From Rubricoccus marinus (GTDB lineage: Bacteria > Bacteroidota > Rhodothermia > Rhodothermales > Rubricoccaceae), in contig NZ_MQWB01000001.1 in NCBI RefSeq assembly GCF_002257665.1, positions 3,669,119-3,733,118 on the forward strand: a DNA stretch of 64,000 nt, read 5' to 3'. Within the stretch, counting starts at the first letter, position 1. Every line of letters starts with the position of its first letter. Below, in pieces: positions 33,086-52,248 of this stretch. The notes under the pieces are model-generated. The model was not told where the DNA came from, did not search any database, and worked only from the letters and a program-made list of their open reading frames with translations. A program made the translations under genes and the position numbers.

Positions 33086-33110
33086 GTAGGGGCGTATTGC
33101 ATACGCCTAC
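33086..33110. repeat. GTAG-headed REP-like hairpin
   Basis: Arms GTAGG and CGTAT (with GG between them) pair with ATACG and CCTAC around the loop TGC. It is related to the elements at 50,027-50,135. Confidence 0.65.
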
Positions 33111-48316: not shown

Positions 48317-50023
48317 ATGAAGCCCTTTTTGCTCTTTCTGCCGCTGGCGGCGCTCGCCGTGCTCGCGGGCTGCCGCGCCGAGAGCGCGCCCGCCGTGAGC
48401 CCTACCGCCACGACCGACGGCCTGACGCCCCAGGAGGACTCCGTCCTCGTCGCCAAGCTCGCGCAGTACACAACGGTGCGGCTGGACGCCGACCTCTCGG
48501 GGCTCAGCGACAGCACGCGCCAGATGATTCCGTTGCTGATCCAAGCCGCCGAGGCCATGGATGAGGTGTTCTGGATGCAGGCCTACCCCGGCGACAAGGA
48601 CTCGCTGCTCGCGAGCCTGGACAGCGAGGCCGCCAGGCGCTACGTGATGATCAACTACGGGCCGTGGGACCGCCTGGACGGCAACGCGCCGTTCCTGCCG
48701 GGCGTCGGGCCGAAGCCACTGGGGGCCAACCTCTACCCGCGCGGCGCCACGCCAGAGGCCATCCGTGAGGCGGCCGATCTCTACCCGGAGCGCGACCTGC
48801 TCGGGTTGTACACCGTTGTCCGGCGCAACGCCAGAGGCCGCCTGAACGGGACGCCGTACCACGTCGCCTTTGCCGAGCAGCACGAACGCGCGGCGGGCCT
48901 CTTGCGGCGCGCTGCCGCGCTCGCGCAGGACGCGGGGCTCAAGACCTACCTGGAGCTCCGCGCCGACGCGCTGGAGACGGGCAACTACCAGCCCAGCGAC
49001 CTCGCGTGGATGGACATGAAGACGAACCCGCTCGACGTGGTGATCGGCCCCATCGAGACGTACGAGGACCAGCTGATGGGCTTCAAGGCGGCGCACGAGG
49101 CGTACGTGCTGCTCAAGGACCCCGAGTGGAGCGCGCGCTTGCAGCGCTACGCCGAACTCCTGCCCGAGCTTCAGCGCGGCCTCCCGGTGGATAGCACCTA
49201 CAAGACCGAAACGCCCGGGACCGACGCCGACCTCGGCGCCTACGACGTGCTCTACGTCGGCGGAGATGCGAACGCGGGCTCCAAGACCATCGCGATCAAC
49301 CTGCCCAACGATGAGGAGGTGCAGCTCCAGAAGGGCAGCCGCCGGTTGCAGCTCAAAAACGCGATGCGCGCCAAGTTCGACCGCATTCTGCGGCCCATTA
49401 CGGAAGAGCTCATCGTAGAGGAGCAACGGGCCAACGTGACGTTCGACGCCTTTTTCGGCAACACGATGTTCCACGAGGTGGCGCACGGGCTGGGCATCAA
49501 GAACACGGTCTCGGGCAACGGGACCGTCCGCGAGGCGCTGCGCGACAACGCGAGCGCGATCGAGGAGGGCAAGGCCGACGTGCTGGGCCTCTACATGGTC
49601 ACGAGCCTGATCGAGCGCGGCGAGTGGACCGAGGCGACGCTAGAGGACCACTACGTCACCTTCGTGGCGTCCATCTTCCGCAGCGTCCGCTTTGGGGCGA
49701 GCAGCGCGCACGGCCGCGCCAACCTCGTGCGCTTCAACTACTTCGTCGAGAAGGGCGCCATCGTGCAAGAGGACGACGGCCGCTGGCGCGTCGTGCTCGA
49801 GAAAATGGCCGAGGCCACCGACGGCCTCTCCCGCGACCTGCTGATGCTCCAGGGCGACGGCGACTACGACGCGACCGCCGCCTTCGCGGCGACCTACGGC
49901 GAGATGACGCCTGCGCTGACCGCGAGCCTGGAGCAGCTCGCCGCGGCGGGCATCCCGGTGGATGTCGTCTTCGAGCAGGGCGTGGACGTGCTGGGCCTCT
50001 CGCCAGAGGCCTCTGGCGAATGA
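48317..50023 (+). CDS. M49-like (dipeptidyl-peptidase III family) zinc peptidase, lipoprotein
   Basis: 568 residues from the ATG at 48317. The lipoprotein signal is LAALAVLAGCRAE, with Cys near residue 19. The catalytic region shows MFHEVAHGLGIKN and, about 35 residues on, AIEEGKADVLGLYM. The HExxH and EExKAD arrangement matches bacterial relatives of M49, whose classical members have HELLGH. It probably trims peptides in the periplasm. The last codons read through two reversed 9-mers (SPEASGE), so the stop lies against the repeat and the following REP-like region. Confidence 0.82.
   Translation: MKPFLLFLPLAALAVLAGCRAESAPAVSPTATTDGLTPQEDSVLVAKLAQYTTVRLDADLSGLSDSTRQMIPLLIQAAEAMDEVFWMQAYPGDKDSLLASLDSEAARRYVMINYGPWDRLDGNAPFLPGVGPKPLGANLYPRGATPEAIREAADLYPERDLLGLYTVVRRNARGRLNGTPYHVAFAEQHERAAGLLRRAAALAQDAGLKTYLELRADALETGNYQPSDLAWMDMKTNPLDVVIGPIETYEDQLMGFKAAHEAYVLLKDPEWSARLQRYAELLPELQRGLPVDSTYKTETPGTDADLGAYDVLYVGGDANAGSKTIAINLPNDEEVQLQKGSRRLQLKNAMRAKFDRILRPITEELIVEEQRANVTFDAFFGNTMFHEVAHGLGIKNTVSGNGTVREALRDNASAIEEGKADVLGLYMVTSLIERGEWTEATLEDHYVTFVASIFRSVRFGASSAHGRANLVRFNYFVEKGAIVQEDDGRWRVVLEKMAEATDGLSRDLLMLQGDGDYDATAAFAATYGEMTPALTASLEQLAAAGIPVDVVFEQGVDVLGLSPEASGE
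50001..50018. repeat. Iterated palindrome at the very end of a coding region
   Basis: CGCCAGAGGCCTCTGGCG read in frame as the last residues of the peptidase; the TGA follows 2 bases later. Confidence 0.9.
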
Positions 50024-50026
50024 TCC

Positions 50027-50051
50027 GTAGGGACACACCGCTGGTGTGTCC
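50027..50051 (+). repeat. REP-like element with GTAG head (left member)
   Basis: GTAG is followed by arms GGACACACC (50031-50039) and GGTGTGTCC (50043-50051) with loop GCT. GTAG at the foot of an imperfect hairpin is the mark of REP elements mobilised by RAYT transposases. Confidence 0.7.
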
Positions 50052-50061
50052 GCTCGATGCT

Positions 50062-50092
50062 GGCGATGCGCCAGGGGCCTCGGCGCATCGCC
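50062..50092. repeat. Hairpin between the two REP-like elements
   Basis: GGCGATGCGCC (50062-50072) pairs with GGCGCATCGCC (50082-50092) around a 9-base loop. Confidence 0.75.
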
Positions 50093-50110
50093 AGAGGCTG
50101 TGGCACCGAA

Positions 50111-50135
50111 GGGGGCGTATGCGATACGCCCCTAC
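50111..50135 (-). repeat. REP-like element with GTAG head (right member, opposite orientation)
   Basis: Arms GGGGCGTAT (50112-50120) and ATACGCCCC (50124-50132), loop GCG, with TAC at the right end, so the minus strand reads GTAGGGGCG. The stop codon of the leftward TBDR gene lies inside it. Confidence 0.7.
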
Positions 50136-52138
50136 AGACGAACGCTCAGCCCCGCACTCACGCCGCGGCCTGGCGCGGGCTCGTAATACCGTCCGCCTCT
50201 GGCGTTGATGGCGACCGAGCCGACCGTCTGGGCGTCCAGCACGTTCTGGATGCGGACGAACGGGAGGAGCGTCGCGCCGCCGGCGCGGAGGCCCTCGTGG
50301 CCCAGCGCGAGGTCCAGCACGACGGCGCCAGAGGCGTCGGCCGTGTTGGCGTCGTCCGCCCAGAGGCGCGAGCGGACCGAGGCCTCTGGCGCGAGGAAAA
50401 AGCCGCCGCGTGAGAAGCGGATCCGCGCCGAGAGGCGGTGCTCGGGCACGCCCGGGAGCGTGTTGCCGTCCAACTCGTCCGTCCCATGGGCCGAAGCGAA
50501 ACGGAGGCGGCTGTAGGCGTACGTCGCCGTCGCGCGGACGTCCGCCAGAGGCGACCACTCGGCAAAGGCTTCGAGGCCGCGATGCGTGGTGCGCTCGCGG
50601 TTGGCGTAGAACGTGCGCCCGTCCTCGCCCTCGAACGGCGCGAGCCCGTCGCGCACGACCAGGCTGTACACGGCCACGTCCACGAGCGCGCGGCCCAAAA
50701 TGACGCCTCTGGCGCCGAGTTCAACCCCGGACGAGCGCTGCGGCCCGACCTCGGCGTTGAACCCGCCGCCGCCCTCGGGACGGTTGACGAGTTCGGTCGT
50801 CGTCGGCGTTTGGAAGCCGGTCGCGAAGGACGCGAAGGCGAGCACGCCTCTGGATCGGTAGCTCAGTCCGACCTGCGGGCTGAACGCTCCCAGCGTGCGC
50901 GATCCGCTCTGGTCGCCGTCGCTCAGCAACCGGTCATCGGCGGAGAAGCGGACACGGTCGGCGCGAAGTGCGGCCTCGGCGCGGAGTGGCCCCGCCAGAG
51001 GCAATCCGGCGCGTGCGAAAAGCCCGCCGCTGGCGACGGTTTCGAGCTGATCCAGATCGCGGACGGCGCCCGGCTCGCCGTTCTCGTTGGGCGCGTTGAA
51101 CCGGCTGTCGCGCTGGACCGCGCCATCGGCACCGAGGGCAACCGCCAGAGGCCCCAGATCGCGCTCGGCGCTCAGCCGAAGCCCTCCCGCGAGGCGGTCC
51201 ACGCCGATGTACGCGAACGGGAGCGGGTTGCGGAGGTCGCGCGCGATGCCGTAGGCCGTGGCCGAATAGGTGGCCTCTGGCGTGACGGCGCGGAGCCGCG
51301 CGGAGAGTTGCCCCTGGGTGCTCCTCTTGCCTGAGTTGGAGTCCACGTAGCGCGTCTCGGCCTGCCGCCGGTCCGTTTCCAGGTCCTCCAGTGTGAGCGC
51401 GCCGGGATGCTGGAGCAGCGGCGACTCCTCCAGCGCGGCCAGAATCCGCAGGTCGGCGCGGAGGGAGAGCGGCAGGTCGGCAAAGCCTCTGGCGCGGTAC
51501 ACCTCCTGCGCGCTGTAGTCGCGGTAGCCGGTGCGCTCGGTCCTGCTTACCGCGAGCCCGACGCGCCCGGCTCCCAGCCGCGTCGCGCCTTCGCCAGAGG
51601 CGCGGATCAGGCCGTAGGCGCCGCCGGTGAGTTGCGCCGTCGCCGTGTCCTCTGGCGGGACAGTGTCGAGGAAGAGGACGCCGCCGCTGCCGTTCCCCCA
51701 GAGCGCGCTCGCGGGGCCGCGCACGATCTCGGCGCGCCGGACGGTCTCGGGGTCCACGACGCCGAGCACGGCCTGGCCATCGGCGAGCGTGAGCGGGATG
51801 CCATCCAGTACGACCTGCACGCCGCGCACGCCGAAGGCGGAGCGGTAGCCCTGCCCGCGCACGATCAGCCGCTCGCCGAGCGCCGCGTTTTCGCGGTCGG
51901 CCACGAACAGGCCGGGGAGCGACCGCAGCGCGGTCTCCAGCCCGGCGCCCGCGTTCGCACTTCGCTCGGTGATGCCGCGCTCGATCACGGCCACGCTGAA
52001 CGGCGCGCGCGCGATGCCGCCTTCGCTGCGCGTGGCCTCTACCCGGACCGACGGGAGCGCGAGGGTGTCGGGGGCTGGGGCCTGGCCTCTGGCGCCAGAG
52101 GCGGCGAGGAGGAGCGTGAGCGTGAGGAGTCGTCGCAT
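50132..52138 (-). CDS. TonB-dependent receptor
   Basis: 668 residues from the ATG at 52138. The signal LLLAASGARGQ is encoded across a full 18-bp palindrome. There is no CarboxypepD_reg domain; the plug starts at once (VRVEATRSEGGIARAPFSVAVIERGI, GLETALRSLPGLFVADRENAALGERLIVRGQGYRSAFGVRGVQVVLDGIPLT). The barrel ends AGLSVRL. The build suits siderophore or vitamin receptors. It is convergent with the peptidase gene across the REP-like region and divergent from the sugar dehydrogenase gene. Its cargo is not determinable. Confidence 0.9.
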   Translation of the reverse strand: MRRLLTLTLLLAASGARGQAPAPDTLALPSVRVEATRSEGGIARAPFSVAVIERGITERSANAGAGLETALRSLPGLFVADRENAALGERLIVRGQGYRSAFGVRGVQVVLDGIPLTLADGQAVLGVVDPETVRRAEIVRGPASALWGNGSGGVLFLDTVPPEDTATAQLTGGAYGLIRASGEGATRLGAGRVGLAVSRTERTGYRDYSAQEVYRARGFADLPLSLRADLRILAALEESPLLQHPGALTLEDLETDRRQAETRYVDSNSGKRSTQGQLSARLRAVTPEATYSATAYGIARDLRNPLPFAYIGVDRLAGGLRLSAERDLGPLAVALGADGAVQRDSRFNAPNENGEPGAVRDLDQLETVASGGLFARAGLPLAGPLRAEAALRADRVRFSADDRLLSDGDQSGSRTLGAFSPQVGLSYRSRGVLAFASFATGFQTPTTTELVNRPEGGGGFNAEVGPQRSSGVELGARGVILGRALVDVAVYSLVVRDGLAPFEGEDGRTFYANRERTTHRGLEAFAEWSPLADVRATATYAYSRLRFASAHGTDELDGNTLPGVPEHRLSARIRFSRGGFFLAPEASVRSRLWADDANTADASGAVVLDLALGHEGLRAGGATLLPFVRIQNVLDAQTVGSVAINARGGRYYEPAPGRGVSAGLSVRL
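52085..52102. repeat. 18-bp iterated palindrome inside a signal-peptide coding region
   Basis: Perfect GCCTCTGGCGCCAGAGGC read in frame as Ala-Ser-Gly-Ala-Arg-Gly just before the predicted cleavage site. Confidence 0.92.
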
Positions 52139-52248
52139 CGCCAGAGGACACGCGCGCGGGTGTGGCGTTCCGGACGCACGCCAGAGGCCCGCGCGGAACA
52201 CCTCGGGAAGCGTTTGGGTCTCTGAGGGACGAACTCCCTACTCCCGCC

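What the first reader, a model, noticed from the sequence alone, without database searches (positions are those of the whole stretch)
50027..50135. A REPIN-like pair of GTAG-headed hairpins facing each other
Two imperfect hairpins with GTAG at the foot (arms GGACACACC/GGTGTGTCC and GGGGCGTAT/ATACGCCCC) lie in opposite orientation around a third hairpin in a 108-base convergent gap. REP elements moved by RAYT (TnpA-REP) transposases have GTAG/GGAG feet and are often paired this way. The arms differ between the two while keeping the head and pairing, as in a family under structure selection.
Basis: partly seen in the sequence, partly recalled or inferred. Interest (0 to 1): 0.6.

Follow-up and report, generated by a model that had tools for sequence, protein, structure and literature searches.

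The report
Hybrid REP pair with own RAYTs

Summary
Confirmed. Window 50027-50051(+) is GTAGGGACACACC-GCT-GGTGTGTCC (family A). Window 50135-50113(-) is GTAGGGGCGTAT-CGC-ATACGCCC (family B). They lie with GTAG outside, in a 108-base gap between a convergent peptidase M49 gene and a TonB receptor gene. The genome (a Rhodothermales relative of Rubrivirga) holds 22 A copies and 21 B copies; reversed-pattern controls give 0 and 0. All ten close pairs of distinct elements point the same way. The key test succeeded: the genome has three RAYT genes, each flanked by one REP family (R1 by B, R2 by C, R3 by A), found only with a RAYT query because a Pfam PF01797 genome scan misses them. REP stems track RAYT phylogeny in relatives, and REPs also sit in frame inside RAYT genes, the published hallmark of TnpAREP subclass 2.4 (RAYT group 4). 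Mobility itself was not shown. New members of a known kind; modest interest. Noticed in passing: the decamer GCCTCTGGCG occurs 14,176 times in this genome, at most 99 in any relative.

The parts
50027..50051 (+). REP of family A: GTAG foot + GGACACACC-GCT-GGTGTGTCC hairpin
   Evidence: exact member of a 22-copy family; 10 of the 22 copies lie within 6 kb of RAYT R3 (G000:C1:889425-889970), whose 5' side carries an A head-head dimer and 3' side another A copy
50113..50135 (-). REP of family B: GTAG foot + GGGCGTAT-CGC-ATACGCCC hairpin
   Evidence: exact member of a 21-copy family; RAYT R1 (G000:C1:272383-272904) lies between two B head-head dimers
50052..50112 (.). spacer between the two REPs
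   Evidence: holds an extra hairpin; not shared with the second A-B hybrid or with homodimers (inspection)
50060..50094 (.). middle hairpin CTGGCGATGCGCC / GGCGCATCGCCAG, in the spacer
   Evidence: folds; arm found elsewhere without REPs
50089..50098 (-). one copy of the genome-wide decamer GCCTCTGGCG (read on this strand)
50132..50134 (-). TAG stop codon of the TonB-receptor gene, supplied by the GTAG of the right REP
   Evidence: ORF 50132-52201(-) ends here; the same-genus orthologue ends at the same residue with TAA and has no REP behind it (L216)
48317..50023 (+). left neighbour, peptidase family M49 (convergent)
   Evidence: PF03571 2.6e-10
50132..52201 (-). right neighbour, TonB-dependent receptor (convergent)
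   Evidence: PF00593 1.1e-33, PF07715 3.2e-13
33086..33110 (+). another REP of the window: family B singleton GTAGGGGCGTATTGCATACGCCTAC, with a GTAG-type foot at both ends

Best explanation
The feature is a hybrid head-head REP dimer (REPIN-like): one REP of family A and one of family B, in inverted orientation with GTAG outside, at the junction of two convergent genes. Each family is the non-autonomous substrate of its own RAYT (TnpAREP), a single-tyrosine HUH nuclease encoded in a REPtron on the same contig: R3 for A, R1 for B, with R2 serving a third family, C. By analogy with E. coli and S. maltophilia TnpAREP, each RAYT would bind the GTAG foot plus the hairpin in single-stranded DNA, cut nearby and transfer the strand, which spreads copies. 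SHOWN: the copies, the pairing geometry, covariation within B, RAYT genes with intact HUH and Tyr motifs flanked by the matching REP family, and REP stems that track RAYT phylogeny. INFERRED: that these RAYTs moved these REPs, and that the hybrid arose when a member of one family landed beside (or replaced the partner of) the other. The pair may also act passively as RNA hairpins at the ends of two convergent transcripts.
For: Copy number: A 22, B 21, controls 0. All 10 pairs of distinct elements within 400 bp are head-head, none tail-tail or head-tail (about 1e-6 if orientations were random). Three RAYTs in the genome at E 1e-119, 9e-54 and 2e-47 with R1 as query; NF047646 REP_Tyr_transpos at 2e-21 (R1), 8e-20 (R2), 6e-19 (R3), just under that model's cut-off; invariant MPDHVH, WQ and YI-ENP motifs. 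R1 lies between two B dimers, R2 between C elements, R3 between A elements. RAYT tree: R3 groups with the G001 RAYT (96/85), and G005a lies just outside the clade that holds R1-R3; the palindromes in those two relatives' genes are GGGGCACACC..GGTGTGCCCC and GGACACGCC..GGCGTGTCC, both A-like. R1 groups with G006 and G007 (clade with R2, 99/98), whose internal palindrome is GGGGCGTATTGCAATACGCCCC, B-like. R3 itself carries a decayed A-type REP in its variable loop.
Against: No direct sign of movement: no same-species empty site was available, and synteny breaks at this junction in the same-genus relative. The RAYT NCBIfam scores fall slightly below the curated cut-off. Copy numbers are low (about 20 per family) compared with hundreds in Pseudomonas (own knowledge), so the families may be old or barely active. 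The two REPs of this pair could be independent singletons that happen to be close.
Confidence: 0.92

Rival explanations
1. The two REPs are independent singleton insertions, each placed by its own RAYT, and never moved as one unit; the pair is REPIN-like in shape only. (A sub-case of the best explanation, differing only in the origin of the pair.)
For: They belong to different families with different RAYTs. The other A-B hybrid (C1:3278800/3278924) has a different spacer, so hybrids do not descend from one unit. Because the arms differ, the two REPs cannot pair into one long hairpin as homodimers can.
Against: Two A-B pairs in head-head orientation within 130 bp are more than expected: with 22 A and 21 B on 3.95 Mb, about 0.015 such pairs within 250 bp (own arithmetic; about 0.15 if insertions are confined to a tenth of the genome). 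No other relative orientation is seen.
Confidence: 0.45
2. The hairpins are kept as bidirectional transcription terminators or mRNA 3'-end stabilisers between the convergent M49 and TonB genes.
For: Position between two convergent genes, strong folding, and the known enrichment of REPs downstream of genes (PMC3733652).
Against: No T-run terminator on either strand. Copies of the same sequences sit elsewhere, including around RAYT genes, so this local role cannot explain the family. It could only be a secondary use.
Confidence: 0.05
3. Chance hairpins in a GC-rich, palindrome-laden genome.
For: The genome holds thousands of copies of the decamer GCCTCTGGCG, many in inverted pairs, and one arm of the middle hairpin overlaps such a copy.
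Against: Exact 25-nt and 22-nt sequences repeated 15 and 13 times with controls of 0; the repeats are GTAG-headed and RAYT-flanked.
Confidence: 0.01
4. The REPs are ends left by IS200/IS605-type elements moved by the two TnpA-like genes on contigs C10 and C11.
For: Those two genes are the only PF01797 hits of the genome scan.
Against: No family A, B or C REP lies next to them; their signature is IS200-like (NF033573 just below cut-off), and in one the HUH motif looks lost. The RAYTs flanked by these REPs are elsewhere.
Confidence: 0.01

Closest known systems
RAYT group 4 / TnpAREP subclass 2.4 REPtrons (grouping of Bertels et al. 2017 as mapped in PMC6006769)
   Same: GTAG-foot long REPs with GC pairs at the stem base; HUH...WQ...YI--NP transposase with a variable insertion between HUH and Tyr; REPs inserted in frame inside the RAYT gene in relatives; abundant in Bacteroidetes and Cyanobacteria
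   Different: This genome's flanking REPs are single-foot, while most relatives' internal ones are double-foot; three REPtrons with three distinct REP families coexist; the main text of that paper does not name Rhodothermus or Salinibacter
GTAG REP superfamily and HH dimers, including hybrid dimers of Stenotrophomonas maltophilia (PMC3733652)
   Same: GTAG terminus, 6-9-bp stem, 2-3-nt loop, GTAG-outside dimers mostly 20-100 bp apart, some hybrid dimers made of two families
   Different: Different stems and host lineage; the main text names neither Rhodothermus nor Salinibacter
REPINs of Pseudomonas fluorescens (PMC3116915)
   Same: Two REPs in inverted orientation forming a doublet, with a RAYT in the genome
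   Different: Here the two halves come from two families; about 20 copies per family; replication as a unit not shown

Membership tests
GTAG REP element | GTAG foot followed by a short stem-loop | tested here: met
GTAG REP element | repeated in the genome beyond chance | tested here: met
   22 and 21 copies, controls 0
GTAG REP element | stem maintained by compensatory change | tested here: met
   family B: 4 of 8 pairs change on both sides, 96% of cells paired, covariation 0/500 shuffles
GTAG REP element | cognate RAYT gene flanked by the same REP | tested here: met
   R1-B, R2-C, R3-A
REPIN | two REPs of the same family inverted around a spacer | tested here: not met
   geometry met, but one half is A and the other B; same-family dimers do occur elsewhere in the genome
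REPIN | replicates as a unit | not testable with these tools
   needs sibling strains or an assay; the two A-B hybrids share no spacer
RAYT / TnpAREP (the three genes) | HUH motif, WQ, single catalytic Tyr followed by --NP | tested here: met
   invariant MPDHVH, WQ, YI-ENP in R1, R2, R3
RAYT / TnpAREP (the three genes) | score over the NCBIfam NF047646 cut-off (80 bits) | tested here: inconclusive
   76.4, 71.1 and 68.4 bits; E 2e-21 to 6e-19
RAYT group 4 / subclass 2.4 | variable insertion between HUH and Tyr, often holding an in-frame REP | tested here: met
   most relatives' RAYTs; a decayed A-type REP in R3; in R1 the loop holds the genome decamer palindrome instead
RAYT group 4 / subclass 2.4 | phylogenetic placement with reference group-4 sequences | not tested
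   no reference set was loaded
IS200/IS605 element ends | adjacent IS200-type TnpA | tested here: not met

The most novel reading that the evidence does not exclude
Hybrid A-B dimers are real composite elements: two RAYTs of different specificity (R3 and R1) act on, or compete for, the two ends of one unit, so that families recombine and new REP families arise by exchange of halves.
Probability: 0.1. Interest if true: 0.5.

Novelty: new member of a known kind. Interest (0 to 1): 0.3.

Why it matters
It documents three REPtrons with three matched REP families in one Rhodothermales genome. That gives a compact natural set for testing how RAYTs tell their own REP from a neighbour's, and whether mixed dimers can be processed. 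It also shows that a PF01797 genome scan can wrongly suggest that a REP-bearing genome has no RAYT.

Tried and rejected
PF01797 scan of the genome: only two IS200-like genes on C10/C11, no family A-C REPs beside them. At first this suggested that RAYTs were absent; it was overturned by querying with a RAYT from relative G005. Rfam: nothing. Intrinsic terminator scan: nothing. Bare GTAGGG is not enriched in the window (21 seen, 16.6 expected), so the hexamer alone proves nothing. Middle hairpin as part of the element: rejected, its arm recurs without REPs. In-frame REPs inside RAYT genes looked new but are already described for subclass 2.4. Empty-site test: the same-genus orthologue of the TonB gene has no REP, but its neighbour differs, so this is suggestive only. 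The nearest M49-gene relatives lack A/B REPs behind the gene; one (L072) has another GTAG double-foot palindrome there.

Full report
OBSERVATION. GTAGGGACACACC-GCT-GGTGTGTCC lies at 50027-50051 on the + strand, and GTAGGGGCGTAT-CGC-ATACGCCC at 50135-50113 on the - strand, with a third hairpin between. The 131-base strand folds far better than shuffles (z = -5.0, 0 of 200). The pair fills the gap between a peptidase M49 gene ending at 50023 and a TonB-dependent receptor gene ending at 50132. Bare GTAGGG is not enriched in the window, so the claim rests on the full elements.

COPIES. In the whole genome (4.43 Mb, 15 contigs, 97.7% complete) the pattern GTAGGGRC-N11-15-GYCC occurs 58 times, against 19 for the reversed control. 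Most of these fall into discrete families. Family A (the left hairpin) has 22 copies with up to 3 mismatches, 15 of them exact. Family B (the right hairpin) has 21, 13 exact. The reversed controls are zero for both. A third family C is GTAGGGGCGAGGCTCGCCTCGCCC, and a minor D begins GTAGGGGCGACC. Another B copy lies in this window at 33086. Within B, four of eight stem pairs change on both sides and pairing holds in 96% of cells; the covariation score is reached by 0 of 500 shuffles and by no slid version. Nine of 19 B copies examined also carry CAGGAYG within 18 nt of the hairpin's 3' side (background about 0.003 per copy), so the copied unit is longer than the hairpin. CC stands directly before GTAG in 29 of 41 A and B copies.

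GEOMETRY. Ten pairs of distinct elements lie within 400 bp of each other, and all ten are head-head, with GTAG outside: four A-A, two B-B, two C-C and two A-B (that listing also shows each hairpin's own reverse strand, which I discounted). The window pair is one of the two A-B hybrids (109 bp). The other is C1:3278800(B, decayed)/3278924(A), 125 bp, with an unrelated spacer. By simple arithmetic (22 A, 21 B, 3.95 Mb) about 0.015 such hybrids are expected within 250 bp if placement is uniform, and perhaps 0.15 if it is confined to a tenth of the genome. Hybrids are therefore somewhat more common than chance, but two cases are few.

RAYT GENES. A Pfam PF01797 scan of the genome returned only two IS200-type genes on small contigs, with no family A-C REPs beside them. 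A relative (G005, same family) has a RAYT between GTAGGGACGCCTCGCCGAGGCGTCC elements. Using that protein as query hit the own genome exactly between two B dimers. Using the gene found there (R1) revealed exactly three RAYTs: R1 at C1:272383-272904, R2 at C1:3848423-3848929 and R3 at C1:889425-889970. R1 lies between B dimers at 272188/272377 and 272923/273114. R2 has a C dimer at 3848103/3848344 on one side and a C element at 3848929 on the other. R3 has an A dimer at 889257/889329 on one side and A elements at 890032 and beyond on the other. Ten of 22 A copies lie within 6 kb of R3. All three genes have MPDHVH, WQ and YI-ENP. They match NF047646 (REP-associated tyrosine transposase) at 2e-21, 8e-20 and 6e-19 for R1, R2 and R3, slightly below its curated cut-off. 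The genome scan probably missed them because their variable loop splits the PF01797 domain (inference; the isolated proteins do hit it).

COGNATE PAIRING IN RELATIVES. In a RAYT tree R3 groups with the same-genus G001 RAYT, and G005a lies just outside the clade that holds R1-R3. The palindromes inside those two genes are GGGGCACACC..GGTGTGCCCC and GGACACGCC..GGCGTGTCC, A-like. R1 groups with G006 and G007, whose genes contain GTAGGGGCGTATTGCAATACGCCCCTAC, B-like. REP type thus follows RAYT lineage, which supports cognate pairing. In most relatives a REP lies in frame inside the RAYT gene, between HUH and Tyr; R3 holds a decayed A copy there (GGACATACCAGCGGCGTGTCTCC). This looked new, but Quentin et al. 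2018 (PMC6006769) describe exactly this for TnpAREP subclass 2.4, equivalent to RAYT group 4 and frequent in Bacteroidetes.

SITE. The TAG of the right REP's GTAG is the stop codon of the TonB gene. The same-genus orthologue ends at the same residue (GLSARL, here GLSVRL) with TAA and has no REP behind it. This fits arrival of the REP at the stop codon, but the neighbouring gene differs in that relative, so it is not a clean empty site.

MECHANISM. Shown: two REP families, their RAYTs, the geometry, and structure conservation in B. Inferred from the biochemistry of E. coli and S. maltophilia TnpAREP (PMC8266576): each RAYT recognises GTAG plus hairpin in single-stranded DNA, cuts and transfers the strand. 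Whether the hybrid dimer ever moves as a unit is open. The arms of A and B cannot pair with each other, so it cannot form the long hairpin that a homodimer can; two adjacent insertions are about as likely. A passive role at the 3' ends of both transcripts is possible but untested; there is no T-run terminator.

The arms differ because the two REPs belong to two families with separate RAYTs, not because one family drifted. The middle hairpin is spacer sequence containing the genome's own hyper-abundant decamer, not a shared part.

ORGANISM. The host is placed in the Rhodothermales from its named relatives: the closest hits to the M49 gene include a Rubrivirga MAG and Rhodothermaceae MAGs. The species is not identified.

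VERDICT. New members of a known kind (GTAG REPs with subclass 2.4-like RAYTs), in a lineage not named in the main text of the two surveys I searched. Interest 0.3. The genome-wide decamer listed under noticed in passing deserves its own study.

Noticed in passing
whole window, e.g. 50089-50098; genome-wide: The decamer GCCTCTGGCG (and its complement) occurs 14,176 times in this 4.43-Mb genome, about one per 312 bp, against 61 for the reversed control and at most 99 in any of 29 relatives including the same genus. In the window there are 231 against 3.6 expected per both strands from an order-3 Markov model. It often forms inverted pairs (GCCTCTGGCGCCAGAGGC, 23 in the window), lies in several reading frames within genes, and resembles the cyanobacterial HIP1 phenomenon but is confined to one species in this sample.
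   Followed up: partly
L166-L193, L195-L211 (RAYT genes of relatives): Most Rhodothermales RAYT genes carry a palindrome, usually a double-foot GTAG..CTAC REP, in frame between the HUH and Tyr motifs. In relative G019 the only such perfect palindrome among the listed matches is the one inside its RAYT gene. Known for TnpAREP subclass 2.4, but why it is retained is unexplained.
   Followed up: partly
L031 (G000:C11:8835-9146) and L032 (G000:C10:136307-136615): Two IS200/IS605-like TnpA genes on small contigs, one with HIH at the HUH position and one apparently without HUH; weak PF01797 matches of similar length occur in relatives G001, G004, G007 and G029. Possibly a domesticated or decayed group.
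   Followed up: no
L035:7188-8114 and other B copies: Nine of 19 B REPs share CAGGAYG within 18 nt of the hairpin, and CC precedes GTAG in 29 of 41 A and B copies; these may mark the true ends or cleavage sites of the mobile unit.
   Followed up: partly
G000:C1:884142-891572: Ten family-A REPs cluster within about 7.5 kb around RAYT R3, far denser than elsewhere in the genome, as if copies land near their RAYT.
   Followed up: partly
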